A DNA stretch of 64,000 bases from Streptomyces sp. NBC_00289 (GTDB lineage Bacteria; Actinomycetota; Actinomycetes; Streptomycetales; Streptomycetaceae), in the NCBI RefSeq assembly GCF_041435115.1, contig NZ_CP108046.1:186001-250000 (forward strand), read 5' to 3'. Made by a program: the position numbers and the translations under genes. The first letter of the stretch is position 1. The number at the start of each line of letters is the position of its first letter. Under the pieces are notes generated by a model. It saw only the letters and a list, made by a program, of their open reading frames with translations, did not search any database and was not told the DNA's origin. Shown here one piece after another: positions 22,494 through 62,806 of the stretch.

Positions 22494-23732
22494 TAGTGCT
22501 GGATTCCGCTTTGGTTGGGTATATGTCTTGGTGGCGGGGTAGTTGATGGTGCTCGGGGGCGGGTGCTGGGCATGGTGTTATGGGCACGGCCGGGCTGTGA
22601 CGAGGACGAACGGGCAGTTGTCCGTCGGTTGTCGCGGGCGCGGAAGGCGCCGCGGGATGTGGTGATGCGGGCCCGGATGATCGACCTGAGCTGGTCGGGG
22701 CTGCGGGTGCCGGCGATCGCGGTGGAGCTGGGCTGCAGCGAGAAAACGGTCCGCTGCTGGCTGCACCGCTTCAACCGCTCCGGGCTGGAGGGGCTGGATG
22801 ATCTGGGCGGGCAGGGCCGCAAGCGGCGGATCACCGAGGCCGAGCGATCCCGGATCATCGCTCTGGTCAAACAGGTGCCGCCGGGCCGGCTGCGGTGGGA
22901 GCCGGGCGGGGAACTGTGGGCGGCCGACGAAGCCGGGCCGGCCGAGTGGACGCTGGACTCCCTGGCCGCCCAGGCCCGGCAGCTGGGTATCGAGGTCGGC
23001 CGCTCCCAGGTGCGCAGGATCCTGGTTGCCGAGGGGGTGCGCTGGCGCCGTACCCGATCCTGGACCCGTTCAAAGGACCCGGACTTCGCGGGAAAAGGAC
23101 GCGGATCATCGGCCTCTACACCCAGCCACCCGACGGCGCGACGGTGATCTGCGCTGACGAACTGGGGCCGGTGATCCCCCGCACTTTTCCGCCCGCACCG
23201 GGCTGGTCACCCGACGGGCACCGGATCAAGTCCGAGCTCGACTCCGGCCGCGGGCCAGAAAAGACCTGGGTCTACGGGGCTTTACGCATCCGGGACGGCC
23301 AGCAGATCACCATGGCCGCATCCTCCCGCAACAGCGTCTTCTACCAGCAATTCCTTCAACTGGTCGAGGACGCCAATCCGGCCTCGAGGACGCCAATCCG
23401 GCCGGTGAGATCTGGATCGTCACCGACAACCTGTCCTCCCACAACAGCCTGTCCACCCGGACCTGGCTGGAGGACCACCCCCGCATCCACCACGCGTTCA
23501 TCCCGGTCGGCGCCTGCTGGCTGAACCTGCAGGAAGGCTGGTGGCGGATCTTCCGCAAGACCGCCCTGGCCGGACGGTCCTTCGCCAACCCCGACGACAT
23601 CACCCAGGCCACAGCCGTAGCCACCCGGCAACTCAACGCCCGAGCCCGCCCCTGGATCTGGGGCCGGCCAGCCCCGCCCACCCGCCAACTACGACGCCGA
23701 TATGCGTACATCCAAAGAGGAATGCAGCACTA
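22494..23732 (+). mobile_element. IS630-family element, second type, copy B
   Basis: Same length (1239 bp) and, as far as can be read, the same sequence as 8363-9601, including the 20-bp internal duplication. The one noticed difference (T to A at 23715, corresponding to 9584) turns the last TGA into AGA. Ends TAGTGCTGG...GCAGCACTA. The target is the IS6 transposase gene. Confidence 0.92.
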
Positions 23733-23733
23733 G
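22515..23733 (+). pseudogene. IS630-family transposase in three frames (copy B)
   Basis: Identical architecture to copy A: HTH frame, a slippery GGGAAAA at 23090-23096, catalytic frame, a 20-bp duplication at about 23367-23406, third frame. The changed stop lets the last frame run five codons further to a TAG in the terminal repeat. Because it carries the same inactivating duplication as copy A, it cannot have moved using its own transposase after that mutation. Confidence 0.8.
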
Positions 23734-24166
23734 GTAACGCGAAGGCGCGATGAAGGGCTTCTAGGTCGGCGAAGCCCAACGGTTCGTGGCCGCGTTCAGC
23801 GGCATATCACCCCACTTCCGGCCCGGCCGCCACCGCCTCGAGATGACCATTCGATTCACGATCTGGGACCAGATCACCGGCGCCGCCGGCCTGCCCGCCG
23901 CGGCCTGACCGAGAACTGACAGCCGACTCGACCACGCCCTGACGCACCGCCAGACGCCACACCCACGACAACGTGACGACGCCGGCGCTTGAACATCCAT
24001 AGGGGCATCAACGCCCCGTGGAGAATTCCTACAACTGCGGTGACCTAGATTCGATAAGCGGCTCTGGCGCATAGCGATCAATTGAGCATTATGTACTCGC
24101 GCCAAGATCGGCTCCAGCCGTCAGCATTCGAACAGGCCTTTCCCTCTTGATCTCGAAACGGACTGC

Positions 24167-25381
24167 ATGAAGAATGCTTCAGGTCCCTCATCTGGGCTGG
24201 GCGAACCACCCAGACGCGTGACGTCCGGCCGGGGCTTCCCGTCCGCTGCCGCACGCGGCGGCCGGGTCGACGGGCTCGACGGCCTGAGGACAGTGGCGGT
24301 GGCGATGGTCCTCGTCTACCACGTCAGGCCGGACCTGCTGCCCGGCGGCTCGGTCGCGGTGGACGTGTTCTTCACCATCAGCGGGTTCGTCATCACCCGC
24401 CTGCTGATCGCCGAGTACTCCCGCACGGGCGGCATCGACCTGCGACGTTTCTACCGGCGGCGCCGGCAGAGACTCGTCCCCGCCCTGCTGGCCGTGTGCG
24501 CGGCGTGCGTCGTGCTGTCGCTGACCACATCGCTGTGGGCCTTCGACGGCGCCTCGGCGGCGGCCGGACTCGCGGCGGTCTTCGTCGTGAACATCGTGCG
24601 GGCCGGGGACGACGGCGCGTACTCCGACGTGACTGGTCCGCTGGCGCACACCTGGTCCCTCAGCGTAGAGGAGCAGTTCTACCTGCTGTGGCCGCTCGTC
24701 CTGCTGTTCCTGCTGCGGCGGTTCCGGGCCCGCACGGCCCTGGTGTGGACGGCCGTGCTGTGCGCGGCGCCGGTGCTGTGGCGGTACACGCTGTGGAACC
24801 CGGACGCGGCCCACCGCATCTACAACGGCACCGACACCCGCGCCGACCAGCTGCTCGCCGGCGCCCTGGTGGCCGTCGTCCTGGCCCGCCTCCACGCGGA
24901 CGGCCCCCGGCTGGAAGCCCTGCGCGGATGGGCCGGCCGACTGGCCCCGCCGGCCCTGGGCCTGCTGTGCATGGTCGCCTGGAAGGTACCCGTCACCGGT
25001 GACGAGGGCGCCTGGACCGCCGCCTGGTACACCGTCGGATTCCTGGCGGTCGCGATGGTGTCCGCGACGCTCGTCACGGGACTCGAACTGCGCCGCGACG
25101 GACACCTCTCACGGCTTTTGTCCCTGGCTCCGCTCGCCTGGACGGGCCGCAATCTCAGCTACGGCATGTACTTGTGGCACTACCCGATCGTGCGCCTGCT
25201 GGCCTCCCTCGGCGTACAAGACGGCCGCCTGTCGGCCACGGTCGTGCTGTCCACCGCCATGGCCCTCCTGTCGTACGCCGTCATCGAGGCACCTCTCCAG
25301 CGCCGAGCCCGACGGCTCGGCTCGGTGCCTGGACACTGCTCGGCGCTGGGCACCTCGACAACAGCACCTCCCCCGACATAG
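24167..25381 (+). CDS. OafA/YrhL-type membrane acyltransferase
   Basis: 404 residues, acyltransferase 3 family, predicted to transfer acyl groups (often acetyl) to an extracytoplasmic carbohydrate or secondary metabolite. Signatures: GLDGLRTVAVAMVLVYHV (about 36-53, with the conserved R and H) and VAVDVFFTISGFVITRLL (about 63-80), followed by FYRRRRQRLVPALL. Around ten hydrophobic segments follow, with HTWSLSVEEQFYLLWPLVLL near 165 and LSYGMYLWHYPIVRLL near 335. The last 20 residues are Ser/Thr/Pro-rich and the end may have been trimmed. It is a single gene, with no partner adjacent. Confidence 0.88.
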   Translation: MKNASGPSSGLGEPPRRVTSGRGFPSAAARGGRVDGLDGLRTVAVAMVLVYHVRPDLLPGGSVAVDVFFTISGFVITRLLIAEYSRTGGIDLRRFYRRRRQRLVPALLAVCAACVVLSLTTSLWAFDGASAAAGLAAVFVVNIVRAGDDGAYSDVTGPLAHTWSLSVEEQFYLLWPLVLLFLLRRFRARTALVWTAVLCAAPVLWRYTLWNPDAAHRIYNGTDTRADQLLAGALVAVVLARLHADGPRLEALRGWAGRLAPPALGLLCMVAWKVPVTGDEGAWTAAWYTVGFLAVAMVSATLVTGLELRRDGHLSRLLSLAPLAWTGRNLSYGMYLWHYPIVRLLASLGVQDGRLSATVVLSTAMALLSYAVIEAPLQRRARRLGSVPGHCSALGTSTTAPPPT

Positions 25382-25431
25382 CCCGCTGCCGACCGAGGCG
25401 GCCAACAGCGTCACACCGCCGAACCCGAGGA

Positions 25432-26070
25432 CTGCGATCGCACGGGCTGCGGCCTGGGCCGGTGCGCGACGCGCTGCTGGCGCTGCCGCGCGAGGTGGTG
25501 ATGCCGCAGGCGTACGTGCGGTGCAGAGCGCGTACCGACGGCGCTCATCGAGCAACTCGCATCCGGCGGCCAGCTCCTCGTGCACGTCACCAGCGCGTCG
25601 CCGTCATGGCCGGGCCTCGCCGTCGTGGAGCGCACCTGCGACGGGCGGATCGCGGCGGAGCTGCGGGCCGTGGAGTTCGCGCACCGGGCAGGCCACGGCA
25701 TGGAGCGGATTGGCTGAGCGAGGAATTCCGCCAGCACATCAACGCCGAGCCGGGCACCCGGACTCAGCGAACCATACTGACACCGCCGGCCGACCGACCG
25801 GAGCCTATGGCTGGCCGCGTACCACCTCCTCGGCGGGCTGGTGCGGGACTTCAGCGCCGAGCATCTGGTGATCGGCGCGCCCGCCTGCGGCTCGTGGCTG
25901 CGCGTGGAACCGGTGGGCCACAAGCGCTGGAACGTCACCACCCAGGGGCCGCGCGACATCTGGAAGGCACTTCAGGACCTGGCGGCCCGGTGGCGGGCGG
26001 CCGGCAGCCCCAGCCGTACCGCCTCCACCTCGATCCGAACGGCGGCCAGCGGGCAGCCTCGGCGTGCGAC
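25432..26070 (+). pseudogene. PCMT-type methyltransferase with its core deleted
   Basis: RDALLALPREVVMPQAYVR resembles the start of actinomycete protein-L-isoaspartate-type methyltransferases associated with RiPP maturation. It is followed directly by late-domain sequence in other frames: ALIEQLASGGQLLVHVTSAS, ELRAVEFAHRAGHGMERI, WLSEEFRQHINAEPGTRTQ and HKRWNVTTQGPRDIWKAL. The S-adenosylmethionine-binding core that should lie between is missing (junction about 25525), and at least two more frameshifts occur. Family assignment is moderate. Confidence 0.5.
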
Positions 26071-26242
26071 CGCCGGTGTCGGAGATCCGGCGCTCGTAAC
26101 GACTGTGGACCCGGGCCGACGAAGCCCCGCAGCTAGAGCAGGCAGCCGATAGCTCGCTGCCTCGGACCTGCAGCCGCACCGTCCGGCCGCTCACCCTGAC
26201 GAAGTCGACGTGGAGCCTGACGAAGTGCGGGAACAGAACAGT
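26045..26242 (-). pseudogene. ISL3-family transposase N-terminal fragment
   Basis: Reading leftwards from about 26242: VLFPHFVRLHVDFVRVSG, then CSSCGASSARVHSRYERR, the zinc-binding N-terminus of ISL3 transposases. It is truncated on both sides, by the IS5 remnant at 26245 and by loss of homology at about 26045. Confidence 0.6.
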
Positions 26243-26244
26243 GA

Positions 26245-26769
26245 GCTTCTTCAGCGTTGCTTCTCCAGGGTGAGGACGGCCTTGGCGATTGACGTGAGTG
26301 TGTTGGGGCTGACGCGGGCTTTTGCGGAAGATCCGCCAGGCTTTGAGTCGTGCGAAGGCCCGTTCGACGGGCGAGCGGAGTCGGGCGTGTGCCCGGTTGA
26401 CGGCCTTCTCTTTGACGGTGAGCTCACGGTTTCGGTGTCTTTTGACGGGTGTGGCGAACGTTCCGCCGGCACCCTGGTACGCCTTGTCCGCGAGGGCGGG
26501 GATCTTCAGTCGCTCGCGTAGGTACACGAGCGTGATGAGGGCCCGCTGAGAGGCCGGCAGTTTGCACCGGCGGTCACCCTCGCGGGTGATGATCAGCATC
26601 GTGACCTACTCCACGAGGGCATGCGGAAGGTCGAGTGCGGCAGGATAGGTAACCAACAAGGCTCCCTGACAAATGAGTTGAGACGTGAGATCTCTCGCTC
26701 AACTGTCCGGGAGCCTTGTCCGTTACGAGCCCTTGTCTGTCACCCGATCGGTGGCCAACTCGAAGAAGC
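26245..26769 (-). mobile_element. Deleted IS5-family element (copy B, 525 bp)
   Basis: Ends GCTTCTTCAG and CGAAGAAGC, flanked by CAGTGA on both sides (26239-26244 and 26771-26776). The transposase keeps its start (LDLPHALVE, then an in-frame TAG) and [18 protein letters not shown]. It then jumps straight to ALADKAYQGAGGTF and HARLRSPVERAFARLKAWRI. The first catalytic Asp block is deleted, so it can only move if another copy supplies transposase. Confidence 0.8.
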
Positions 26770-26870
26770 TCAGTGATGAGCTCAGCAACAGTCACCCAGC
26801 ATGATCACGAGTCTTCATGATCGACATCTCGGGTTTCACGGAACTGATGCTGTTGGTGATCTCTAGGCCG

Positions 26871-27602
26871 TCAGCCTTTGGCAGAGCTGCCGGAAGTGGC
26901 TTGGTGGTCGTAGTGAAGCCGATGTGGTGCCGGGCGGGAAGCATTCGCTGAGTCGGACGATGAACCGCCCCGGGTTCGGTAGAGATCTCGGTTGGTGGTC
27001 GTGACCTGGGGTTTCGTGGTTGTCAGGTAGTAGTCGGTTTCGTACTCGACGGGTGGGACGTGGCCTATCTCACCGTGCAGGCGTCGGTGGCAGTACCAGT
27101 CGACCCACTCGGCGGTGGCCAGCTCGACCTGGCTGACGGTCCGGCCGGCGGCGGTGACGGCGGACAGCAGGTGGGCGGCGGGCCCGGTATCGGTGCGCGA
27201 TCCGCGGGCACTCTTGCCGTCCACCGCGACCGTCTCCGCCCCGGCCGGGCCGTGTCCGAGAAAGTCGGCGAGGGCGCCGGGACACACCAGGACCAGCACC
27301 CGGCGCAGAGTGGAGAGCGAGGCCGCACGGCGTACCTGGAGAGGCCCGCGTGCATGAAACCCCGGGCGGGCGAGGGTGTCCTGGGGTGCGTGGCGGGCCC
27401 ACTCGCCGATGGCCAGGTAGGAGCGGGCGCCGGCCAGGACCGCGCACGCGGCGGTCAGTAACACCGAGGTGAGCGTGTGGCGGCGTCCGCGCCGGCCACG
27501 GGGATCGGCCAGGGCACCCAGCCGGGCAGCCGTGTCCGACAGCTCACGCTGCTGACGGGTGGGCGACTTGATCAGACAGATGGTGGCAGACTGGCGGCAC
27601 AT
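26871..27602 (-). pseudogene. Chimeric ORF: ISAs1 N-terminus fused to IS3 C-terminus
   Basis: The open frame starts MCRQSATICLIKSPTRQQ at 27602. Its first about 158 residues are ISAs1-type (LADPRGRRGRRHTLTSVL, IGEWARHAPQDTLA, VAVDGKSARGSRTDTGPAAH). At about 27125 it switches, without losing frame, to the C-terminus of an IS3 OrfB (TAEWVDWYCHRRLHGEIGHV, Glu region) down to about 26990. The tail to 26871 is unassigned. Neither half has a complete catalytic site. Confidence 0.75.
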
Positions 27603-27816
27603 CGAAGCTCCGGTGGTCGGGCGACTTGGTAGGTCTCCCTGATCATCGGAGCTTCGTTGCGTGCGGCATTGCCGGAGTGAAGGTTCGTCACATCCCTGTG
27701 ACCTGCTGGTTCTCGCAGCCGTAAGGACTTTGAATCAGCCCTGATCCACGGGCCGGCCAACTCGACGATGAGCGCCCCGAGTCGACGCCTCGAGATGCCG
27801 TGCAGATGCGATGCAA

Positions 27817-27871
27817 GAGAGCCGTACGGGCCAAGGATCGCTTCACAACCATCCCAACCCGTACGGCTCTC
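27817..27871. terminator. Hairpin with 14-bp perfect stem
   Basis: GAGAGCCGTACGGG (27817-27830) pairs with CCCGTACGGCTCTC (27858-27871) across a 27-base loop. The core GCCGTACGGG also forms the terminator at 61427-61473. Confidence 0.55.
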
Positions 27872-28174
27872 CTCACGTTCCCCACCAGCCAAAACCGCTT
27901 TCGTACACCACACCGTTACTCCAACTCGCCTGCAGCATCATCTGTTTGAGGCGACTCAGAACCTCATTGTGAAACGATCAGTAAGCCGCCCGCAGGAAAG
28001 GTTCCGCTCTTCCGATAGTGGGCATAACTAGAACACGTCCGCCTATACGATTCCGGCGATACGGTACATGCCTACAGCCCTGTGGTCGCCGTGAATGCAA
28101 TTGGCATGTGAGTTCAGCCGTTCCATGCAAGATCCGCCCCGCATTGGGAATGTGCCACAGTCTGATGGTCAATG

Positions 28175-28580
28175 GCACAACCTTGCTCTGATAGTCGACG
28201 GCTTGCCGAGCAGGGCAGATGTCGTGCTGTGATCTCGGCGTCGGCAGGCCCGCTATCGCAGTGACGTTGATCAGTGGCAGGGCGCCACCTTTGATCCTGT
28301 GCAAGTTTCGATGTGATCAACGTTGCCGACTCCGGCGGCCAGCAGCACCGGATATTTCTTCACCTTCGACAAGATTATTCTTGCGCATCTCGCGCAGCCT
28401 GGAAGAGAGTCCGGTGCCGCATATCAAGTTCCTGCCACTGTGGAATAGATACAAAGATCTTGAAATCCGATCCTTCCGTATCGGCCAACGTCGCTCTGAT
28501 AGGAGGTCTGCCGAGATCGCACCAGTACATCTGCCCTGTTCAGCAAGCTATCGACCGGCGCAAGCAGAGTGACGTTGCAC
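28175..28580. repeat. Imperfect about 90-bp inverted repeat
   Basis: The arm around 28193-28248 (with GCAGGGCAGATGT and CTGTGATCTCGG) is matched in reverse complement around 28508-28556 (ACATCTGCCCTGTTCAGCAAG, shortened here). Similarity continues outward through GTGACGTTG-type ends. About 230 bp lies between the arms. It could be a degenerate transposon, or a fold-back regulatory element upstream of the ceramidase gene. Confidence 0.5.
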
Positions 28581-28671
28581 GTAGCGGCAGGCTGGTATTC
28601 ATCGGCAGTTGCGAGTGGTCAGTGCCCTCCGGAAACGAGACCCCCTAACCCGACAGGAGAGGACTGCGCTC

Positions 28672-30693
28672 ATGTCAATGAGTAGGAGGCGTCTACTGAC
28701 CGGTGTAGCCGGCCTGTCGGTCGCCGCCCACGTGTTCAACTCCGCGGCGCCCGTCGCGGCACAAGGCGAGTATCTGGTCGGGCGCGGGATCTCGGATGTG
28801 ACCGGGCCAGGGGCCGAGAACGGCATGATGGGTTACTCCTTGACCCAGCAGAAGACCACCGGGATCCATATTCGCTGCAGGGCTCGGGCGTATGTAGTGG
28901 TGGATTCTTCGGGCCGACGCGTCGTGTTCGTCACCGCCGATCTGGCTGCGATCTTCCAATCCGTGCATCAGGGTGTGCTGGCACGGCTGGCGAAGATGTA
29001 CGGGGGCCTCTACACCGATCAGAACGTTCTGCTGAATGCCACGCACACACACTCCGCGTCTGGTGGCGAATCACATTACGCGCTGTACAATCTTGCGATC
29101 CTCGGATTCCAGCAGCAGACCTTTAGCAGCGTTGTCACGGGGATCGTCGAGGCGATCAGCAAAGCGCACAACGATCTCGAGCCTGGAAGCATGATGATCG
29201 GGCGCACTGAGCTCACCGACGCCAGTGTCAACCGGTCGAGGGTGGCGTTCGAGCGCAACCCTGCAGAAGACAGGACGCAGTTCCCGTTGGCGATCGATCC
29301 CGCTGTGACGGTGCTGCGGTTCAGGCAGGGCGGTCACGATGTCGGTTCGATCAACTGGTTTGCTACGCATGGCACGTCGATGACGGGTGCTAACCGGCTC
29401 ATCAGCGGTGACAACAAGGGCTACGCCGCCTATGCGTGGGAGCATGACTACGCCGGGGTTCGCTACCTCGATGGTGTGCCTGGTTTCGTCGCGAGCTTTC
29501 CGCAGACCAATTCCGGGGACATGTCGCCGAATCTGAACCTTCGACCGGGGTCGGGACCGACGGAGAACGAGTTCGAGAATACTCGGATCATCGGCGACCG
29601 CCAGTTCCGTGCGGCACTGCGCGCATTCGGCTCGGCGACCGAGCAGGTCACCGGAGGGGTGGACTCCCGGCTGTGCTATGTGGACATGTCCGCGGTGGCG
29701 GTGGCCGGGCAGTACACGCCGGACGGGAGACTGCACTCGACGTGTACAGCCGCGATCGGCGTATCCATGCTGGCGGGCAGCACCGAGGATGGACCCGGAA
29801 TCCCCGTGCCGGAAGGTGCCAAGAACCCGCTCGTCGAGGCGCTCGGCGGACTGGACGCGCCGATCCCGCAGGCTCTTGCCGATGCCCAGGCTCCGAAGCT
29901 CGTGGCCCTGCCCACCGGGGCAATGCGGCCATACCCATGGACACCAGATGTGCTGCCGTTGCAGATCCTTCGCATCGGTCAGCTGCACCTCGTCGCGGGA
30001 CCCGCCGAGTACACGATCGTCGCCGGGCTGCGTATCCGCCGAACCGTGGCCGCGGAACTTGGTGTCCCGCTAGAGCACGTGCTCCTCCAGGGGTACGCCA
30101 ACGCCTACAGCCAGTACGTCACGACACCCGAGGAGTACGACTCCCAACAGTACGAGGGCGGATCGACACTCTTCGGCCGCTACACCCTCCCCGCCTACCA
30201 ACAGGAGTTCGCAAAACTCGCGGCCTCGCTCCGCACGGGAACGTTCCCCGACCAAGGCCCCGTCCCACGTGACCTGTCCGGAAGTCAGCTCAACTTTCAG
30301 ACTGGCGTCGTCTTCGACGACCCGACGCCGTTCAGGAACTTCGGTGACGTCCTCACTCCGCCCAAGAGCAGCTACCGTCGCGGTGAGCGGGTCTCAGTGG
30401 GGTTCGTCACCGGCCATCCCAAAAACAACCTGCACCGCGGCGGAACCTTCCTCGAAGTACAACGTCTCACCGGTGGACAGTGGATCCGCCACGCCGACGA
30501 CGGCGACTGGGCCACGAAATACCGCTGGACTCGCACCCTCGGCGCCACCTCCACCGCAACGATCACCTGGGACATCCCCGCGGACACACCCGTCGGCACC
30601 TACCGCATCCTCCACCACGGCGACTGGAAAAACGGACTCACCGGCCACATCACATCCCTCAGCGGCACCTCACATGCATTCACCATCTCTTGA
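28672..30693 (+). CDS. Secreted neutral ceramidase
   Basis: 673 residues from ATG 28672, chosen because AGGAGAGG stands 10 bases upstream; an earlier GTG has none. A Tat-like signal (SRRRLLTGVAGLSVAAHVF, cleaved near VAAQG) precedes the catalytic domain. Motifs: NATHTHSASGG (Zn/His region, about 122), NWFATHGTSMTG (about 235) and QTNSGDMSPNLN with nucleophile Ser285, then a C-terminal Ig-like domain (about 530-673). Neutral ceramidases hydrolyse the amide bond of ceramide to sphingoid base and fatty acid. G+C is lower than in typical Streptomyces genes, suggesting acquisition. The sphingomyelinase gene lies 446 bases downstream on the same strand. Confidence 0.92.
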   Translation: MSMSRRRLLTGVAGLSVAAHVFNSAAPVAAQGEYLVGRGISDVTGPGAENGMMGYSLTQQKTTGIHIRCRARAYVVVDSSGRRVVFVTADLAAIFQSVHQGVLARLAKMYGGLYTDQNVLLNATHTHSASGGESHYALYNLAILGFQQQTFSSVVTGIVEAISKAHNDLEPGSMMIGRTELTDASVNRSRVAFERNPAEDRTQFPLAIDPAVTVLRFRQGGHDVGSINWFATHGTSMTGANRLISGDNKGYAAYAWEHDYAGVRYLDGVPGFVASFPQTNSGDMSPNLNLRPGSGPTENEFENTRIIGDRQFRAALRAFGSATEQVTGGVDSRLCYVDMSAVAVAGQYTPDGRLHSTCTAAIGVSMLAGSTEDGPGIPVPEGAKNPLVEALGGLDAPIPQALADAQAPKLVALPTGAMRPYPWTPDVLPLQILRIGQLHLVAGPAEYTIVAGLRIRRTVAAELGVPLEHVLLQGYANAYSQYVTTPEEYDSQQYEGGSTLFGRYTLPAYQQEFAKLAASLRTGTFPDQGPVPRDLSGSQLNFQTGVVFDDPTPFRNFGDVLTPPKSSYRRGERVSVGFVTGHPKNNLHRGGTFLEVQRLTGGQWIRHADDGDWATKYRWTRTLGATSTATITWDIPADTPVGTYRILHHGDWKNGLTGHITSLSGTSHAFTIS

Positions 30694-31139
30694 AACCTCC
30701 GCGCCGCGCAGAACCCGTAACCGCGAAGGCTGACTTGGCGGATAGACACCCGCATGGAGGGTCTTCGCACGTGGCCGACCGGCTCGGATCCCCGGAGCTA
30801 CTTGCGCGCCCTGGACACCGGAAAACCCATGACCACCCCACCCAGGCCCGCCGCCCGGTCCAAGTACCAGCGGTGAACCAGCCTGCACGCCCAGCCGCCG
30901 ACGCGAAAACCGCCGAGCCTGGGAGCACACCGGGCTTCCTGCCCACTTCTGCCGACAGAACGGTCTCACCGAATAGGGGATGGAAAGCCCCGAGCTGAGC
31001 CGGCCTCAGTCAGACGACTCACGGACACCGTAATCAACCCTCGACGGAAAGTGACACGTCGGAGTCCGAACTGACCCCTTCGAGTCGGATCAGCGGCTGT
31101 CAACAGCGCGTCGCCGGAATCGACAAGAGAGGCATCAGC
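30694..31139. other. Intergenic region between ceramidase and sphingomyelinase genes
   Basis: 446 bp with no supportable ORF or strong hairpin. GAGAGG, 9 bases before 31140, is the ribosome site of the next gene. The length suggests a separate promoter for the sphingomyelinase, though none is recognisable. Confidence 0.4.
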
Positions 31140-32108
31140 ATGAAGACCAGATCCTCCACACTGGCCGTGGCGGCCACTTGTCTCGCGGCCGCCACGGTGT
31201 TCGGCACCACCGCGAGCGCCGAGGCGGCGCCCCGGAGCACAGCCGCCATAGCTCCGTCCCTGAACATCGTGTCCAGCAACACGATGCTGCTCCCGTCCGT
31301 GGTCGTCGACCAGTGGGCGCAGGACTTCCGTGGCGGCCTCATTGGCACATCAAGCTATACGCAGAACCACGACGTCGTCGTCTTCCAGGAACTGTTCGAC
31401 AACAGCGCCTCAAACATCCTGCAGAACAAGATGAAGGCGCAATACCCGTACCAGACGCCGGTGATCGGCCGTTCCACCAGCGGGTGGGACTCCACACAAG
31501 GCGACTACTCCTTCTTCACCCCGGAAGACGGCGGCGTCGGCGTCATGAGCCGCTGGCCGATCACCAAGAAGGTGCAGTTCATCTACAACGAGTCCTGCGG
31601 CAACGACAGCCTCTCCGGAAAAGGCTTCGCCTACGTCCGGCTCAACGTCAACGGAACCGCGGTCAACGTCATTGGAACCCACCTCCAGTCGGACGACGAC
31701 GGCTGCGACGCCAGCGAGCCAGCACGGGTGCGGACGGCCCAGCTCAGGGAGATCCGGGCCTTCGTCGACAAGCTCAAACTCCCGGCGAGCGAAGAAGTCG
31801 TCTACGCCGGCGACATGAACATCGACCGCTACAGGCCCGAGTATTCGACCCTGCTGTCGACCCTGAACGCCGCAGCGCCCTCCTTCGCCGGTGTGCCATA
31901 CACCATGGATCCGGCCACCAACTCGATCGCCAAAGCCCGCTACACCGGCGAGCCACGCCAGTGGCTCGACTACATCCTCTTCAGCAACTCGCACGCCCGC
32001 CCTGCGACCTGGACCAACACTGGGCTCAACGTCCACCCCCACACCTGGACATTGAACGACACGCAGTACTACGACTACTCGGACCACTACCCGATCCAGG
32101 GCTCGTGA
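31140..32108 (+). CDS. Secreted sphingomyelinase C (neutral SMase)
   Basis: 322 residues, close to the bacterial sphingomyelinase/beta-toxin family size. A Sec signal (MKTRSSTLAVAATCLAAATV, cleaved near AEAA) precedes an endonuclease/exonuclease/phosphatase-fold domain. LNIVSSNTMLLP opens the fold; the metal-ligand Glu is in VVVFQELFD (Glu84). VNVIGTHLQSDDDGC, YAGDMNIDRY and WLDYILFSNS follow, and the catalytic His316 lies in YSDHYPIQGS at the very C-terminus. It would cleave sphingomyelin to ceramide and phosphocholine, supplying substrate for the upstream ceramidase. Such enzymes are haemolysins or virulence factors in several Gram-positive bacteria. Confidence 0.92.
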   Translation: MKTRSSTLAVAATCLAAATVFGTTASAEAAPRSTAAIAPSLNIVSSNTMLLPSVVVDQWAQDFRGGLIGTSSYTQNHDVVVFQELFDNSASNILQNKMKAQYPYQTPVIGRSTSGWDSTQGDYSFFTPEDGGVGVMSRWPITKKVQFIYNESCGNDSLSGKGFAYVRLNVNGTAVNVIGTHLQSDDDGCDASEPARVRTAQLREIRAFVDKLKLPASEEVVYAGDMNIDRYRPEYSTLLSTLNAAAPSFAGVPYTMDPATNSIAKARYTGEPRQWLDYILFSNSHARPATWTNTGLNVHPHTWTLNDTQYYDYSDHYPIQGS

Positions 32109-32169
32109 TCAGGCCTTTCACCGCTCGTTCGGGGTCTGTCCAGTAAACGGTGTAAGCGGTTTGGTTTCT

Positions 32170-33055
32170 GGAGCCTTTTCCATGTGTACGGCTGGCGGGT
32201 GAGGTGGTGGGGCGGCGTTGACTGTGGCGTGACGAACGGGGCATCCCGCTGGTTTGGAAAGTCGCCAAACGTATCCTCACCTGCGGAGATGCCCCGTGTT
32301 CTTCTATCCTGCCGCATGCGACCTCGACGAAGAGCTCCTCGAACTGGTGACGATGGCGATCGTCGCGTGTGACGGTGACCGTGCCTGCAAGCTGCGCCCG
32401 TACGATCGGGCCCGGTGCACGCTGGTCTACCTGCGCAAGCACGACACCTTCGAACAGCTCGCCGCAGGGTTTGGTATCGGTGTGGCCACGGCCTGGCGCT
32501 ACACGAACGACACGATCGAGTGCCTAGCTGCTTTCGCCCCGTCGTTGACCGAGGCGCTGACCAGCCATCACGCCGACGGATACGTGCTGCTGGACGGCAC
32601 CGTCGCGGAGACCGACCGGGTCCAGGAGCCAGGCCACTTCTCCGGGAAGGTCCACCGTGAGGGCGTGAACCTGCAGGTCATCACCGCGGAAGAGGGGAAG
32701 CTGCTGTGGCTCTCGCCCGCCCTGCCCGGAGGCACCCACGACGTGAAGGCCGCCCGCGAGCACGGCATCATCGACACCTGCGCACAGCTGGATCTCGAGG
32801 TCCTGGCGGACAAGGGCTACGCCGGAGCCGGCGGCACGGTCATCACTCCGATCAAGCGCCGCCCGAAGACCGAGCTCAGCGACAAGCACAAGAAGTCGAA
32901 CAAGGTCCACGCGGCCCTGCGGGCTCCCATCGAACGGACGATCTCCCGGATCAAGCGGTGGCGGATCTTTCGCCACGCCCGTACCAGTCCGAACAGGCTC
33001 ACGTCAGCCGCCGCAGCGATCCTCACCCTCATGATCTACACGTGAAAAACGCTCC
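32170..33055 (+). mobile_element. IS5-family insertion sequence (copy C), intact
   Basis: Imperfect inverted ends GGAGCCTTTTCCATGTGTA (32170-32188) and TACACGTGAAAAACGCTCC (33037-33055). It lies between the IS256 stop codon (33061) and what looks like the outer IS256 terminus (GTCTGTCCAGTAAACGG, about 32136-32152). It therefore inserted in the 3' noncoding end of IS256. No target duplication was resolved. Confidence 0.75.
32296..33045 (+). CDS. IS5-family transposase, intact
   Basis: 249 residues from GTG 32296 (FFYPAACDLDEELLELVTMA), the conserved family start; an in-frame ATG 14 codons upstream is possible. [26 protein letters not shown] candidates: VLLDGTVAETDR, VLADKGYAGAGG and APIERTISRIKRWRIF. 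No frameshift. It is a different subtype from the other IS5 copies in the window. Confidence 0.88.
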   Translation: MFFYPAACDLDEELLELVTMAIVACDGDRACKLRPYDRARCTLVYLRKHDTFEQLAAGFGIGVATAWRYTNDTIECLAAFAPSLTEALTSHHADGYVLLDGTVAETDRVQEPGHFSGKVHREGVNLQVITAEEGKLLWLSPALPGGTHDVKAAREHGIIDTCAQLDLEVLADKGYAGAGGTVITPIKRRPKTELSDKHKKSNKVHAALRAPIERTISRIKRWRIFRHARTSPNRLTSAAAAILTLMIYT

Positions 33056-33773
33056 TGGGTTCAGATTCGGTTGTTGGTGAGGCGTCCGTCGAAGGCGATA
33101 TCGAAGGCCTGGAGGGCTCGTTTCCAGCGGGTGGTCCAGCGTTTTCGGCCGGTGCCGGTCGGGTCGAGGGACATCACCGCGAGGTAGACGCACTTCAGAG
33201 CGGCGTTCTCGGAGGGGAAGTGGCCGCGGGCCCGGACCGCCCGGCGGATCCGTGCGTGGACCGACTCAATGGCGTTGGTGGTGCAGACGATCCGGCGGAT
33301 CTCCGCGTCGAACTGCAGGAACGGCACGAATTCGGCCCACGCGTTCTCCCACAACCGCACGATCGCAGGGTATTTGCTGCCCCATTCCTCGCTGAATTCG
33401 AGGAACCGGCTGGGGGCCGCGTCCTCGGTCGGCGCCGTGCAGACCGGCTTCAGTGCTTTGGCGATCTTGTCCCAGTCCTGGGGCTGGCATAGCGGAACGA
33501 TGCCCGCAGGAGGTGGACGACGCAGGTCTGGACGACGGCCCGCGGCCAGACCTCGCCGACCGCGTCGGGCAGGCCCTTGAGCCCGTCGCAGACCAGCATG
33601 AGGACGTCTTCGGCGCCGCGGTTTTTCAGCTCGGTCAGGACGCGGAGCCAGTGCTTGGCGCCTTCGCCTCCCTCGCCGCCGGCCCACAGTCCCAGGATGT
33701 CGCGGTGCCCCTCGGCCGTGACTGCCAGAGCCATGTATATCGGCCTGTTGGCGACCTGGCCCTCGCAGATCTT

Positions 33774-35471
33774 GGTTCTGGCGATGATCTTGTGATTCGG
33801 GCGGTGGGGCTCACCGTGTGAGCAGGACGCGTTTGCGAAGGAGATCGAGACTGGCCCTGCCGAACATCTGGCGTTTCAGCATCTTCAGCCGGTTGATGTT
33901 GCCCTCGACGGCGCCGGAACTGTGCGGTAGAGACAGCCCGTTGCGGACTGCGTCGAAGTCGCGGCGGAGGTTGCGCGCGAAGCCCGCAAGCGGAGCCAGA
34001 CTGTCCTGTTCGACGTCGATGATCCAGTCTTCGAGGCGGTCGCCGTGCCGTCCGGTCATCATCGCGGCGAACTTCCTGACGTGAAGAGTGAGCCGGTCAA
34101 GTTCAGGATCGCGCTCACGCAACCGGTGCAGGTTGTCAGCGTCCTCGTCCCGCAGGTGCTCGGGGTGCGTCATGATCCAGGAGGTGACCTCGCGGACCGA
34201 GGGAGGCTTCGGTCCCGGATCGGGTGCGTGTCCGCGCCCGGTCCGGTAACGCCGCAGATGCCGCTGAACGGCCAACTCGCCGCCGGAATAACCGAGTTGC
34301 TTGATCTCCCGGTAGAGCTGGGCAGCGTTTCTGACACCCTCGTTCCAGCGCCGGTGCAGGTAGCCGACGTACGGATCAACGACATGCGCTCGTTGGAGGT
34401 TCTTGGCCACGACATCGTCGGCGGAGCGTGCGTTGACCAGTTTGCGGACGGTGGCCTGGTGCAGCCCGAGCTTCCGGCCGATCGCCGCCTTCGACATCCC
34501 CTGCTGCCACAGTTCGTGGGCGGCAGCATGCTGCTCACGCAGCCGGATCACGATCTTCAGCTCTTTCGGCGGCTGGACCACCTCGGGTTCCACCTCCACG
34601 AGGTCGGGGCCGGAGGCTGAGCCGGGATGCGGTTCGGTCAGGTGGGAGCGATGGGCGTTGACCGTCTTCTCAACCGCTTGGCCGAGGTTGGCCCACAGGT
34701 GATAGCGATCCGCGACCTGTTCGGCCTGCGGCGCCCCGACCCGAGCGCCCTCCCCGTAACCGCTGGAACGGTCTCGGCAAATGACCCTCACCTCTGGGTG
34801 ATCGCGGAGCCAGGCGGCCAGGTCCTCCCCGTCGCGGCCGTCGTAGATGTGCAGCGGACGGTGGGTGGCCATGTCGATCAGGACCGTGCCGTAGTGGCGG
34901 CCCTTGCGGAAGGCGAAGTCGTCGACCCCGAGGATCTCCACCTCGCCGATCTCCGGCTCGGGCAGGGACCTGACCAGCCGCAACAGCGTATCCCTGCCCA
35001 CGGTGAGGCCGACCGCGGCCGCCAAACGGGCTCCTGCCCGGCCGGCCAGGGACAGGCCGATCTGCGTCAACACCCCACGCAGCTGCGGGGTATGTCGGCT
35101 GTGCGGGGTGGTCAGTCCCGCGATCTGCTCGGCAAACGTCACCGCCGTGCAGGCAGGGTTCTCACAGCGGAAGCGGCGTATGCCTAACTCGATCACGACG
35201 CCGAGCCCGCCCACGGCGACATCACGCAGCCGGCGTACATACCGGCCGTGCACCCGTGCCGAGCTTTGGCCGCACCGGCAAGCCGCGGTCGTCGCTCGCG
35301 CGCGCGTCCTCAGCACCACCTTGTCGGGCCGCCGCTGGACCTCCTCGATCAGCAACGCGGACAGGTAGGGAAACAACTCCAACAGCACATTACGAGAGCA
35401 CGCGATGCATGATCGCGAACATCTGAAACGACCTGCACAAGCGTCCGGATCACAAGATCGTCGCCAGAACC
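33774..35471 (-). mobile_element. ISL3-family insertion sequence (copy B), intact
   Basis: Ends GGTTCTGGCGATGATCTTG (33774 onward) and, inverted, GGTTCTGGCGACGATCTTG (from 35471) match over about 30 bp. A perfect 8-bp duplication CAGATCTT flanks the element (33766-33773 and 35472-35479), as expected for ISL3. Removing the element plus one copy rejoins IS256 codons (N-V-K-I-C-E-G). Confidence 0.95.
33811..35388 (-). CDS. ISL3-family transposase, intact
   Basis: 525 residues. N-terminal zinc region: CRCGQSSARVHGRYVRRL, with a second Cys pair in RFRCENPACTAVTF. Catalytic candidates: GVDDFAFRKGRHYGT, VICRDRSSGYGEGA and SSGAVEGNINRLKMLKRQMF near the C-terminus. The HTH-like GRKLGLHQATVRKLV is around residue 310. 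No interruption is visible and its ends and target duplication are intact, so this copy looks recently active. It is about half-similar by eye to the ISL3 at 163-1782. Confidence 0.92.
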   Translation of the reverse strand: MLLELFPYLSALLIEEVQRRPDKVVLRTRARATTAACRCGQSSARVHGRYVRRLRDVAVGGLGVVIELGIRRFRCENPACTAVTFAEQIAGLTTPHSRHTPQLRGVLTQIGLSLAGRAGARLAAAVGLTVGRDTLLRLVRSLPEPEIGEVEILGVDDFAFRKGRHYGTVLIDMATHRPLHIYDGRDGEDLAAWLRDHPEVRVICRDRSSGYGEGARVGAPQAEQVADRYHLWANLGQAVEKTVNAHRSHLTEPHPGSASGPDLVEVEPEVVQPPKELKIVIRLREQHAAAHELWQQGMSKAAIGRKLGLHQATVRKLVNARSADDVVAKNLQRAHVVDPYVGYLHRRWNEGVRNAAQLYREIKQLGYSGGELAVQRHLRRYRTGRGHAPDPGPKPPSVREVTSWIMTHPEHLRDEDADNLHRLRERDPELDRLTLHVRKFAAMMTGRHGDRLEDWIIDVEQDSLAPLAGFARNLRRDFDAVRNGLSLPHSSGAVEGNINRLKMLKRQMFGRASLDLLRKRVLLTR

Positions 35472-35519
35472 CAGATCTTCACGTTGATGCAGTCGATGAA
35501 GACGACCGGGTAGACGCGG

Positions 35520-36751
35520 CGGTTTCCATCAGTGGTTGCGAATCACCTGGTCAATGGGCCTGTGAGGCATTCTTGCATGGCCTCGGCCGGGGTCTTGTCC
35601 CCGAGGACGATGCGGGGTCGGTGGTTGAGTTGGCGGGCGACGGCGCGAAGGTCTTGTGCGGTGTGGACTGACAGATCGGTGCCTTTGGGAAAGTACTGCC
35701 GCAGCAGGCCGTTCATGTTCTCGTTGGTGCCGCGCTGCCAGGGCGAGTGAGGGTCGCAGAAGTAGATCCGGAAGCCGGTGAGGGCCTCGATGTCCTCGTG
35801 GAGCGTCAGTTCGCGCCCCTGGTCCCAGGTGAGGGTTCTCTTCATCTGGGGCGGGATATGCGCGGTCGGCGTGATCAGCGCGTTGCGCACCTGCGGGGCC
35901 TTCCAGCCGCCGGGCAGGTGGATCAGGTGAACGTAACGGGTGGTGCGCTCGACCAGGGTGCCGATCGCCGAGCCCTGTCCGCGGCCGATGATGAGGTCTC
36001 CCTCCCAATGCCCGGGAGATCTGCGGTCGTTGACCTCAACGGGGCGCCGGTGGATCAGCGTCATGTTCTTGATCTTGTTCAGGGTGGGCACGCCGCGACG
36101 CTGCTTCTTGCGTCGGGTTCGGCCGGTGCGGAGCTTGGCGTCGCGCCGGCCGAGGAGGCCGGCAAACAGGGCCCGGTAGATCGTCTCCGGCATGCCCGCA
36201 TCGATGTGTCGTGGGCGTGTTCGCGGGCCAGGTGACGCGAGATCTGCTGAGGAGACCACTTCTCAGTGAGCTTCTCGCGCACGAACGTCCGCAGCGGCTC
36301 GCCGACCCGGATCTTCTCCTCTTGGGACGCCTGCGACGCAGGAGGGCGCGATTGTGGGCCCACCAGGGGTTGTAGCGGCCGTCCGGCTTGCTGTTGCGCT
36401 CGATCTCCCGGTAGACGCTCTGAAAGCTCTTCCCGATCGAGGCCGCGATCCGCTTCACGCTCTGATCGGAGTGCAGGCCGTCGGCGATCGCGATGCGGTC
36501 GTCCTGGGTGAGGAAGCGCGGCGATATCGGGCCGGGGTCAGCAATGATCATGCTCCCAGCATCGATGAACCACAACGAACCGCAGCTCGTGGACACCCCG
36601 ACCTGGCGGGCGGCAGCCGCACCTCGATACCCCGCGTGCAGCAGCTCGAAGTACCTCTTCTTCACCGCAGTCGGCACTCTGTTGGGGGCGTACCTCGGCA
36701 TGCAAACACTCTCCTTCCGGAGCGTTCGCAACAACCAATAGAACTCAAGCA
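35520..36751 (-). mobile_element. IS30-family element with broken transposase
   Basis: Imperfect inverted ends share GTTGCGAA about 20 bases in. CGG at 35517-35519 and 36752-36754 fits a 3-bp duplication in the IS256 gene. The transposase (36698-35543) is in three frames: PNRVPTAVKKRYFELLHAGY and IAASIGKSFQSVYREIERNS (HTH), then REKLTEKWSPQQISRHLARE, then SPGHWEGDLIIGRGQGSAIG, TLTWDQGREL and SPWQRGTNENMNGLLRQYFP with the DDE residues. Frameshifts lie near 36320-36340 and 36190-36210, so it is not functional. Confidence 0.8.
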
Positions 36752-37388
36752 CGGTCGAGAGGACGGCTCTGCCATTCCGCCATGCCGTCCATGACCTTGA
36801 TGCTCCTATCGTTGGTGCGGCAGCGAGCCAGCTGCGATAGGCGTCGGCGAAGGTGTCATCGCGTCGGAGGCCCGTTCGATGTTGGAGATGACGGCGGGCC
36901 AGACGCCGAGGTGGTTCGCTGCGGCGGTGAGCGTGATGTTCTTGGCCTGGCGGGCGAGCCTGAGATCCGCGACCTCAGGAACCTGGACTGCAGTTGTCAA
37001 TAGACGGAAGACCTCCCGGGCGATGGCGCGTTTGAGGAGCCGGATGATTTCCTTCTTCGCCCGACCGGCATCGGTTTGACGCTCCACGTAGTCACGGGTG
37101 CGCTGGTCGCGGCGCATGCGGACGAGCGCAATGCGGTAGAGGGCTCCGTTCGCGGCGCGGTCGCCGCCGCGTGAGAGCCGGTGACGGCTGGTCTTGCCGC
37201 TGGAGGCCGGAACCGGGGCGACACCGCACAGAGCGGCGAAGGACGCTTCGGTGCGCAGGCGGGCGGGGTTGTCACCGGCGGTGTGTCGGCGTACACACGA
37301 TCGTCCCCGGTCGCGTACGAGTGAAAAGGGACGCTTGATGGTGCGGTGAATCGTGGTGCCCGGCACTCTTCTGCTCGTCCGGTGAAGG

Positions 37389-38828
37389 GTGGCGGAGGGT
37401 GGTGACGCGGTGGTTTTGGACCCGCAGCGCTGGCTGGAACTGCGGCGGTTCCGTGCTCTGGTCGAGTCAGGGGCGGTCAGTCTGACCGAGGTGGCCAAGG
37501 AGACTGGGCTGGACCGCAAGACGGTCCGCAAGTATCTGTCGAGCACGGCGGCGTCGGTGCCGCCGAGGCGGACGTCGAACGGCCGGCCCCGGAAGAAGGC
37601 GGTCGACGAGGTCGCCCCGTTGATCGACGCGATGCTGCGGGCAGAGATCCTCATCAAGGGTGCTGTGGTGCACGAACGCCTGGTGAAGGAGTACGGCTCG
37701 ACGATCAACTACCAGCGGGTCAAGCTCTATCTGCAGGAGGCCCGGCCGCGGATCGCGGGTGAACTGGGGATCGAGCCGCGGGAGTTGGCGGGTATGCACC
37801 GCCGCTTCGAGGTGGTTCCCGGGGCCCAGGCTCAGGTCGACTGGGGCGATGAAGGCAAGATCCTCGCCCACCTGGGAATCCCGAAGGTCTACTCGTTCCA
37901 TATGGTGCTGTCGTACTCGCGCGATCCGTTCTGCTGCTTCACCACGAGCCAGGACCTGCAGACCTTCTTCGACTGCCACCGGCGGGCATTTGCGCACTTC
38001 GGCGGGGTGCCGATGTCGATCGTCTACGACCGGACCAAGACCGTCGTGCGCCGGCACGTCGCTCCCGGTGAGGCGGTTCCGCTGCATCCGGAAGCGGTCG
38101 GCTTCGCCGGCCACTACGACTTCGACATCGACGTGCTGGCCGCCTACCGGCCCACCGGGAAGGGTCGGGTCGAACGCCAGGTGTTGATCGTGCGTGATCA
38201 CGTGCTGGCCGGGCGGGCGTTCTCCTCGCTCGAGGAGTTGGATGCCGCGTTCTTGGCGTGGGTGCCGCAGCGACGCGCCCGCACCCACGCCACCCACCAC
38301 GAGGTCATCGGACACCGGGCCGCCCGGGATCACGCCGCCCTGAAGCCGTTGCCGTCCTCGCCCTATCTGGTGGCCGAGCGGCATCTGCGGCCGGTGGGCA
38401 AGGACTGTCTGGTCGCGTTCGGCGGGAACCTCTACTCGGTGCCCGCCCGCAAGGTCCGCCCGCGTCAGCTGGTGGAGATCAGAGCGACGAAATCCCAGGT
38501 CATGCTGCACACGACCGTCCCCGATGCCAGCGGCGAGACGTTGCTGTCCAGCCATCCGCGGGCGGTCGGCCGCGGCGTGGTTGTCAAGCAGGATGAGCAC
38601 TGGGACGGCCTGCCAACCGGCAAGAACCGCCGCACTACGACGGGCGACGAGCCGCCACCACCGCAGAGCGAGTTCCCCGCGGCGGGTCGCATCGGGCCCT
38701 TGCAGGCCCTGTTGAACCGGGCCGCTGCAACCCAGATCGAGGTCGGGCGGCGGCCGCTGTCGGTCTATGACGAACTGACCGGCACCCGGCCCTTCACCAC
38801 CAACTCCCCGACGAAGGAGTCGTCTTGA
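37389..38828 (+). CDS. istA: IS21-family transposase IstA
   Basis: 479 residues, in the IstA size range. N-terminal HTH: LTEVAKETGLDRKTVRKYLS (about 27-46). The integrase-like core has AQAQVDWGDEGKIL (first Asp), FGGVPMSIVYDRTKTVV (second Asp) and, further on, GKGRVERQVLIVRDH (Glu). A beta-barrel domain follows (FGGNLYSVPARKVRPRQLVE). The stop overlaps the istB start, so the two are translationally coupled. The start is GTG 37389 or a nearby in-frame GTG. Intact. Confidence 0.92.
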   Translation: MAEGGDAVVLDPQRWLELRRFRALVESGAVSLTEVAKETGLDRKTVRKYLSSTAASVPPRRTSNGRPRKKAVDEVAPLIDAMLRAEILIKGAVVHERLVKEYGSTINYQRVKLYLQEARPRIAGELGIEPRELAGMHRRFEVVPGAQAQVDWGDEGKILAHLGIPKVYSFHMVLSYSRDPFCCFTTSQDLQTFFDCHRRAFAHFGGVPMSIVYDRTKTVVRRHVAPGEAVPLHPEAVGFAGHYDFDIDVLAAYRPTGKGRVERQVLIVRDHVLAGRAFSSLEELDAAFLAWVPQRRARTHATHHEVIGHRAARDHAALKPLPSSPYLVAERHLRPVGKDCLVAFGGNLYSVPARKVRPRQLVEIRATKSQVMLHTTVPDASGETLLSSHPRAVGRGVVVKQDEHWDGLPTGKNRRTTTGDEPPPPQSEFPAAGRIGPLQALLNRAAATQIEVGRRPLSVYDELTGTRPFTTNSPTKESS

Positions 38829-47315: not shown

Positions 47316-47319
47316 CTGA

Positions 47320-62765: not shown

Positions 62766-62806
62766 TCAATTGCTCCGCACCCAACCCGGTTGTAACCTGC
62801 CAGCTC

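What the first reader, a model, noticed from the sequence alone, without database searches (positions are those of the whole stretch)
28672..32108. Two-step extracellular sphingomyelin degradation locus
A secreted neutral ceramidase (Ser285 in the N-S-G-D-M-S-P-N motif) and a secreted sphingomyelinase C (Glu84 and His316 sites) are adjacent, same-strand and signal-bearing. Together they would yield phosphocholine, fatty acid and sphingosine from host membranes. Sphingomyelin is absent from bacteria and plants, so an animal-, insect- or other eukaryote-associated lifestyle is suggested. IS elements flank the pair and G+C is lower, consistent with acquired virulence or scavenging genes.
Basis: partly seen in the sequence, partly recalled or inferred. 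Interest (0 to 1): 0.8.

Follow-up and report, generated by a model that had tools for sequence, protein, structure and literature searches.

The report
Mobile sphingomyelinase–ceramidase gene pair
A Streptomyces carries, side by side near both ends of its linear chromosome, two genes for secreted enzymes that should break the eukaryotic membrane lipid sphingomyelin down in two steps; both enzyme kinds are known, but this pairing is rare, looks mobile, and its sphingomyelinase has a shortened membrane-docking loop.

Summary
28672-30693 encodes a neutral ceramidase and 31140-32108 a sphingomyelinase C, same strand, with export-type N-termini and intact active sites, among transposase genes. The host is a Streptomyces; the pair occurs twice, in a large terminal inverted repeat. 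The same pair sits on a linear Kitasatospora indigofera plasmid and, judging from shared contig length, in Streptomyces sp. NPDC005574. Pairwise dN/dS is low for both genes. Their histories differ: the ceramidase groups with Amycolatopsis/Saccharopolyspora, the sphingomyelinase with a mostly Streptomyces clade whose beta-hairpin is 4 residues short and lacks the aromatic tip. In 14 of 80 related ceramidase loci a different sphingomyelinase-like gene follows directly. The animal-lifestyle and virulence reading is not supported: sphingomyelinase C occurs in 180 of 392 congeners, the two families co-occur no more than chance, and the G+C dip is ordinary. Likeliest role: an exchangeable two-step sphingolipid-scavenging module. 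Adjacent genes of this kind are already known from Pseudomonas aeruginosa (plcH/cerN).

The parts
28672..30693 (+). neutral ceramidase (673 aa), exported; in-frame ORF opens at TTG 28609 but ATG 28672 is the likely start
   Evidence: PF04734 597.8 bits, PF17048 180.3 bits; 2zws 668.2 bits; start shared with K. indigofera homologue; dN/dS 0.143
28672..28764 (+). twin-arginine-type signal region (MSMSRRRLLTG...VAAQ)
   Evidence: sequence read, no predictor run; an RRx[LFIVM][LMIVF] N-terminus occurs in 59 of 120 homologues
29524..29526 (+). codon of Ser285 in NSGDMSPN
   Evidence: Ser in 114 and Thr in 6 of 120 homologues
30694..31139 (+). 446-base intergenic region; its 3' half (from 30910) is conserved with the Kitasatospora plasmid, so a separate promoter for the sphingomyelinase is plausible
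   Evidence: blastn pieces 28642-30730 and 30910-32108; no sigma-70-type consensus site found
31140..32108 (+). sphingomyelinase C (322 aa), exported
   Evidence: TIGR03395 316 bits over cut-off 248.2; 7cne 291.6 bits; model pLDDT 89.6, best fold matches 7cne and 3i5v; dN/dS 0.253
32046..32069 (+). shortened beta-hairpin (W303-Y310, apex N306-D307) where Bc-SMase has the W284/F285 tip
   Evidence: strands 303-305 and 308-310 in the model
28194..28555 (.). 362-base palindromic element (arms 28194-28269 and 28486-28555) just upstream of the ceramidase, not found in the K. indigofera plasmid
   Evidence: (fold z -8.5)
27983..28135 (.). upstream block shared with the plasmid (74.5%)
26871..27602 (-). 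transposase fragment (DDE_Tnp_1_assoc plus a sub-threshold rve_3 match)
32254..33045 (+). DDE_Tnp_4 transposase
33811..35388 (-). ISL3-type transposase

Best explanation
The two genes form a laterally exchanged two-enzyme module of Streptomycetaceae for extracellular use of eukaryotic sphingolipids. The sphingomyelinase C, exported by Sec, cleaves sphingomyelin to phosphocholine and ceramide; the ceramidase, exported by Tat, cleaves the ceramide to a fatty acid and sphingosine. Shown by computation: family membership, complete active sites, adjacency, duplication in the terminal inverted repeat, presence of the same pair on a linear plasmid, low dN/dS of both genes, and different tree positions of the two genes. 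Inferred: the export routes (from N-terminal sequence), the reactions themselves, that the two act in sequence, and the role (scavenging of phosphocholine and fatty acids from dead or living soil eukaryotes rather than virulence). Because the sphingomyelinase hairpin is truncated, I expect it to work better on dispersed or disrupted lipid than on intact membranes.
For: Families and active sites. Predicted structure matches Streptomyces griseocarneus sphingomyelinase C 7cne (TMt 0.94) and beta toxin 3i5v (TMt 0.97-0.98). Same pair, order and strand on K. indigofera plasmid NZ_CP108209.1, with strong similarity limited to the pair; it is the only record common to the 18 plasmid records with a sphingomyelinase match and the 8 with a ceramidase match. 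Streptomyces sp. NPDC005574: both homologues (82% and 85%) listed with a 4,059-base contig. dN/dS 0.143 and 0.253. A comparable arrangement with another sphingomyelinase-like gene in Amycolatopsis/Tamaricihabitans, 14 of 80 loci. Second own copy inside a terminal inverted repeat. In P. aeruginosa a neutral ceramidase encoded next to PlcH increases its haemolytic activity (PMC8634861, passages; PA0844/PA0845, PMC5150637, passages).
Against: No activity data. Among the 25 other genomes of the genus draw that carry both families none shows them adjacent, and co-occurrence is not above chance, so the enzymes do not need each other. Three short-hairpin sphingomyelinases whose surroundings I read (G294, G210, G1073; 3 of 3) have no ceramidase within about 9 kb. 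The 446-base gap speaks against tight co-transcription. The ceramidase scores 684 bits against a 1200-bit cut-off for NCBIfam's neutral ceramidase equivalog. In the NPDC005574 pair the motif serine of the ceramidase is Thr. A 362-base palindrome upstream of the window's ceramidase could have altered its promoter. Tenacibaculum maritimum has both enzymes under well-separated locus numbers (PMC5561996, passages), so linkage is not the rule elsewhere either.
Confidence: 0.7

Rival explanations
1. Acquired virulence or host-damage genes: the pair attacks membranes of an animal or insect host.
For: Family members include haemolysins; the plcH/cerN pair of P. aeruginosa acts this way; mobile surroundings; a large SpvB/FG-GAP/RHS protein lies 22 kb away.
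Against: Sphingomyelinase C is ordinary in the genus (180 of 392); the aromatic hairpin tip tied to liposome binding and haemolysis in Bc-SMase is missing; no call ties the host to animals. Caveat: M-SMase2, in which PMC9710629 found no hairpin, still gave moderate clearing on blood agar.
Confidence: 0.12
2. The two genes are neighbours by accident in an IS-rich subtelomeric region and work independently (two unrelated acquisitions).
For: Different tree positions of the two genes; 446-base gap; 0 of 25 other two-family genomes shown adjacent.
Against: The arrangement is kept on the K. indigofera plasmid with dS about 0.4-0.5 while the flanks differ, probably also in NPDC005574, and a similar arrangement exists in Amycolatopsis.
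Confidence: 0.13
3. The phosphodiesterase's real substrate is another sphingophospholipid of soil eukaryotes (ceramide phosphoethanolamine or inositol-phosphoceramide) and the ceramidase processes the resulting ceramide. (Not exclusive of the module reading.)
For: The ceramidase-linked enzymes lack the usual hairpin tip; the two Amycolatopsis/Tamaricihabitans partners scanned (2 of 14) score far under the sphingomyelinase equivalog cut-off (117 and 112.5 against 248.2 bits).
Against: The window enzyme itself passes that cut-off (316 bits) and keeps the 12 catalytic or metal-related positions examined.
Confidence: 0.15

Closest known systems
Streptomyces griseocarneus sphingomyelinase C (PDB 7cne) and the TIGR03395 family
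   Same: Fold, length, catalytic and metal residues; 48% identity in the fold match
   Different: Hairpin 4 residues shorter, apex Asn-Asp instead of the Trp-containing tip
Staphylococcus aureus beta toxin 3i5v (entry titled 'beta toxin 275-280')
   Same: Closest fold match by TM-score of the target, TMt 0.97-0.98; same shortened hairpin region in the alignment
   Different: 3i5v looks like a laboratory construct (inferred from its title); here the short form is natural and shared by a clade of 22 rows
Pseudomonas aeruginosa neutral ceramidase CerN (PDB 2zws)
   Same: 668.2 bits over the enzyme; zinc ligands conserved
   Different: Under NCBIfam's narrow equivalog cut-off; twin-arginine-type N-terminus here (that of CerN not examined)
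plcH/cerN gene pair of P. aeruginosa
   Same: A gene for a sphingomyelin-cleaving enzyme next to a neutral ceramidase gene
   Different: PlcH belongs to another phosphoesterase superfamily (abstract start of PMC2673038 in a search listing); there a sphingosine regulator SphR controls cerN, none was looked for here
Ceramidase + sphingomyelinase-like gene pair of Amycolatopsis/Tamaricihabitans
   Same: Same order and strand, phosphodiesterase downstream, related ceramidase (68-75% identity)
   Different: Alignment of the partner begins 16-96 bases behind the ceramidase; partner only 30-36% identical to the window's, without a hairpin in all 14; the 2 scanned are under the TIGR03395 cut-off

Membership tests
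Sphingomyelinase C (TIGR03395 equivalog) | Score over curated cut-off (248.2 bits) | tested here: met
   316 bits
Sphingomyelinase C (TIGR03395 equivalog) | Catalytic and central-metal residues (Bc N16, E53, H151, D195, N197, D295, H296) | tested here: met
   N47, E84, H181, D225, N227, D315, H316; each kept in 118-120 of 120 listed proteins, the window's own included
Sphingomyelinase C (TIGR03395 equivalog) | Edge-metal residues (Bc N57, E99, D100) | tested here: met
   N88, E129, D130
Sphingomyelinase C (TIGR03395 equivalog) | Aromatic beta-hairpin for membrane contact (characteristic rather than defining: absent in some accepted members) | tested here: not met
   W284/F285 positions fall in a gap; residual 3+3-residue hairpin in the model
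Sphingomyelinase C (TIGR03395 equivalog) | Hydrolysis of sphingomyelin | not testable with these tools
   needs an enzyme assay
Neutral/alkaline ceramidase (PF04734 + PF17048) | Both Pfam domains over gathering scores | tested here: met
   597.8 against 32.1 and 180.3 against 30.5 bits
Neutral/alkaline ceramidase (PF04734 + PF17048) | Zinc ligands (Pa H97, H204, E411, Y448; labels recalled) | tested here: met
   H125, H233, E446, Y482; 120 of 120 homologues
Neutral/alkaline ceramidase (PF04734 + PF17048) | Ser of the GDxSPN motif | tested here: met
   Ser285; Thr in 6 of 120 homologues
NCBIfam NF041649 neutral ceramidase equivalog | Score over curated cut-off (1200 bits) | tested here: not met
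   684 bits; so not filed under this narrow equivalog
plcH/cerN-type linked sphingomyelin degradation module | Adjacent genes for a sphingomyelin-cleaving enzyme and a neutral ceramidase | tested here: met
   28672-30693 and 31140-32108
plcH/cerN-type linked sphingomyelin degradation module | Induction by sphingosine or synergy of the two enzymes | not testable with these tools
   no expression or activity data; works-like claim only

The most novel reading that the evidence does not exclude
A neutral ceramidase gene has been linked to a sphingomyelin-type phosphodiesterase with three different partners (PlcH superfamily, the Amycolatopsis sphingomyelinase-like enzymes, the Streptomyces short-hairpin sphingomyelinases), by separate pairings or, in the two actinobacterial cases, by a swap of the partner. 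Both actinobacterial partner lines lack the aromatic hairpin tip, as if a linked ceramidase, by drawing ceramide off, relieves the enzyme of holding on to the membrane. In Streptomycetaceae the pair would travel as a scavenging cassette on linear plasmids and chromosome ends.
Probability: 0.2. Interest if true: 0.5.

Novelty: new variant of a known kind. Interest (0 to 1): 0.35.

Why it matters
It adds a plasmid-borne and telomere-region example of a linked sphingomyelinase-ceramidase pair outside Pseudomonas, names a natural clade of sphingomyelinases with a truncated hairpin as material for testing what the hairpin does, and shows that sphingomyelinase genes are common in Streptomyces and should not by themselves be read as marks of virulence.

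Tried and rejected
Rejected: G+C as evidence of transfer (75 of 606 stretches as low). Rejected: general co-occurrence of the two families in the genus (26 of 392, p 0.21; the counts take every match at E <= 0.001, weak and partial ones included). Rejected: an obligatory link of short-hairpin sphingomyelinases to ceramidases (0 of 3 neighbourhoods; Streptomyces sp. NPDC047108 has both, P0011 and P0126, listed with contigs of different length). Led nowhere: phage records (6 matches, all Staphylococcus phages, 5 annotated as sphingomyelinase or hlb and one without annotation); Rfam on 27600-32300 (none up to E 0.5); promoter scan (0 promoter-like sites); plasmid relatives of the palindromic element (none) and genomes of 20 relatives (0 of 20); my first listing of genes downstream of ceramidases took the longest ORF and often picked wrong frames, replaced by tblastn. 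Phylum draw: ceramidase family in 27 of 396 genomes (24 over cut-off), TIGR03395 in 6 of 396 (4 over cut-off). In the hairpin count one fragment (P0050) had no hairpin segment; the script binned it as 'short' (25), I count 24, and it was left out of the tree. Protein searches list only the best 120 of 167 and of 2366, with 7988 candidates scored; only the best 80 of 151 ceramidase loci were kept. The paper on Pseudomonas sp. TK4 sphingomyelinase, recalled as possibly relevant to adjacency, is not held, so nothing is claimed from it.
Full report
What is there. 28672-30693 (+) is a complete neutral ceramidase and 31140-32108 (+) a complete sphingomyelinase C. The ceramidase matches PF04734 over its whole profile (597.8 bits) and PF17048 (180.3 bits), and P. 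aeruginosa neutral ceramidase 2zws over residues 55-693 of the TTG-started frame with 668.2 bits. It does not reach NCBIfam's narrow equivalog (684 against 1200 bits). The sphingomyelinase passes its equivalog (316 against 248.2 bits). Mapping through the printed alignments keeps the zinc ligands (H125, H233, E446, Y482) and, of 14 Bc-SMase positions, the 12 that are catalytic or metal-related; the two hairpin-tip positions fall in a gap. Ser285 was located by its motif. The four zinc ligands are kept in 120 of 120 ceramidase homologues, the serine in 114 of 120, with Thr in 6.

Where it lies. The window is C1:186001-250000 of an 11.0 Mb genome. C1 is 10,626,179 bases long. Both genes occur a second time in mirror position, with 100% identity of the sphingomyelinase. 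A 20,001-base alignment from the other end is 99.985% identical to window 22168-42166, and 19,835 bases around C1:250-269 kb match their mirror without a mismatch. A repeat element from window 63000-63900 gives 42 matches, of which 40 form 20 mirror pairs out to about 626 kb and two (438,957 and 685,123) have no listed partner; 40 of 232 candidates were scored. So the pair sits in a terminal inverted repeat that I followed by samples to about 270 kb and that probably exceeds 600 kb; the outermost 186 kb were not read. No further sphingomyelinase C or ceramidase of these families was found in this genome. The genus is Streptomyces by inference: one congener of the draw, G311, has its sphingomyelinase at exactly the coordinates of Streptomyces sp. 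BHT-5-2.

How common the parts are. TIGR03395 matches 180 of 392 genomes of the genus draw (168 over cut-off), PF04734 47 of 392. With the window sphingomyelinase as query, 238 of 394 genomes of the family draw have a match, many weak. In the genus draw 26 genomes have both families, which is not more than expected (Fisher p 0.21). In the 25 other than the window's own, none shows the genes adjacent: for 20 the listed places are on different contigs or far apart, and the remaining five have no sphingomyelinase match in the 1.5 kb flanks of their PF04734 match, a flank that in the window's own locus shows 188 residues of the sphingomyelinase. These are partly draft genomes, so a contig break could hide a case, and for genomes with two sphingomyelinase matches not every place was listed.

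The same pair elsewhere. Kitasatospora indigofera NBC_00106 carries it on a 92,044-base linear plasmid, same order and strand, about 6 kb from one end, with an IS256-family transposase gene nearby. It is the only plasmid record in both lists (18 records with a sphingomyelinase match, 8 with a ceramidase match). Nucleotide similarity covers 28642-30730 (84.9%) and 30910-32108 (80.9%), plus a short upstream block at 27983-28135 (74.5%) and weak matches in other stretches. dN/dS between the two is 0.143 (ceramidase) and 0.253 (sphingomyelinase), which points to purifying selection. Streptomyces sp. NPDC005574 has homologues of 82% (P0003) and 85% (P0123), both listed with a 4,059-base contig; the pair needs about 3.4 kb, so adjacency is nearly forced, but I did not read that contig. 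A 97% ceramidase (P0122, Streptomyces sp. NPDC057909) is on a 5,424-base contig with no listed sphingomyelinase.

Two ancestries. In a 111-row tree (quick method, midpoint root) the window and K. indigofera ceramidases form one clade (99) that groups with Amycolatopsis, Tamaricihabitans, Kribbella sandramycini and Saccharopolyspora (support 92, below the 95 star), apart from the 29 Streptomyces ceramidases of the genus draw (49-65% identical to the window's) and four further named Streptomyces. Against a simple donor story, a Streptomyces sp. NPDC047108 ceramidase (P0126, 76%), not in the tree, is as close to the window's as any Amycolatopsis one, so this lineage may have been in Streptomyces for some time. 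The sphingomyelinase belongs to a clade of 22 rows (99) with the short hairpin, whose named members are Streptomyces and Kitasatospora; two other short ones (P0116, P0119) fall elsewhere. I infer that the pair was put together from a Pseudonocardiaceae-like ceramidase and a Streptomyces-type sphingomyelinase.

The hairpin. Of 120 listed proteins, 95 have the long segment and 24 the short one; one is a fragment without the segment. The 30 sphingomyelinases fetched from the genus draw (the best-scoring ones) are all long. The AlphaFold2 model (pLDDT 89.6) shows only strands 303-305 and 308-310 there, and Foldseek's best PDB matches are 7cne and the beta toxin entry 3i5v. Published work, read in passages (PMC9710629), ties the Bc-SMase tip to liposome binding and haemolysis. 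The same paper reports metagenomic enzymes with hairpins 4 residues shorter (M-SMase1, M-SMase3) or none, and tested two: M-SMase5 (full-length hairpin, tip substituted) and M-SMase2 (none). Both had sphingomyelinase activity, and M-SMase2 cleared blood agar moderately. A short hairpin is therefore known as such and does not rule out haemolysis.

A parallel case. Of 80 loci found with the window ceramidase, 14 (13 Amycolatopsis, 1 Tamaricihabitans) have a sphingomyelinase-like gene on the same strand whose alignment begins 16-96 bases behind the ceramidase, and a 15th (L074) a fragment. The 8 of 14 that I aligned are clear homologues of the sphingomyelinases (hhalign probability 100; solved sphingomyelinases at E down to 9.1e-34) and keep N33, E71, H173, D216, N218, D302 and H303. 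The 2 of 14 scanned score 117 and 112.5 bits, under the equivalog cut-off, and all 14 lack the hairpin. Because the ceramidases of the two cases are related, this may be a separate pairing or a swap of the partner. In P. aeruginosa cerN lies next to plcH and enhances its haemolysis (PMC8634861, passages; PMC5150637, passages). Tenacibaculum maritimum has both enzymes under separate locus numbers, MARIT_1748 and MARIT_2033 (PMC5561996, passages).

What is in print. Full-text searches for sphingomyelinase + ceramidase + Streptomyces (9 papers), neutral ceramidase + Streptomyces (5), ceramidase + Amycolatopsis (1) and broader sets (15 listed of 15; 12 of 47; 12 of 46) showed, by titles and abstract starts, no description of this pair in actinobacteria. 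The library holds open-licence papers only.

Judgement. I put 0.7 on a two-step sphingolipid-scavenging module (the rivals are not all exclusive of it); catalysis, order of action and ecological role are inferred.

Noticed in passing
28194-28555: Palindromic 362-base element (arms about 70-76 bases, fold z -8.5) present, relative to the K. indigofera plasmid, between a conserved upstream block and the ceramidase; no match in plasmids, in 20 relatives, or elsewhere in the genome apart from its terminal-repeat copy. It may be a MITE-like insertion altering the promoter.
   Followed up: partly
1-64000 (whole window; C1:186001-250000): The window lies in a large, nearly perfect terminal inverted repeat, followed as 20 mirror pairs of a repeat element out to about 626 kb.
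   Followed up: partly
54341-61297: 2,318-aa ORF with SpvB, FG-GAP and RHS-repeat matches and a signal-like N-terminus; part of the stretch (53-61 kb) with unusual GC and AT skew.
   Followed up: no
3567-5291: Group II intron reverse transcriptase/maturase on the minus strand.
   Followed up: no
47309-48191, 61892-62773 and several places in L209: A roughly 0.9 kb element repeated several times, at 84-99% identity, in this part of the terminal repeat.
   Followed up: no
P0123 (Streptomyces sp. NPDC005574) and five other ceramidases: Thr replaces the motif serine (GDxTPN) in 6 of 120 homologues while all zinc ligands stay, which bears on whether that serine is the essential nucleophile.
   Followed up: no
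24167-25381: Acyl_transf_3 membrane acyltransferase gene about 3 kb upstream of the pair.
   Followed up: no
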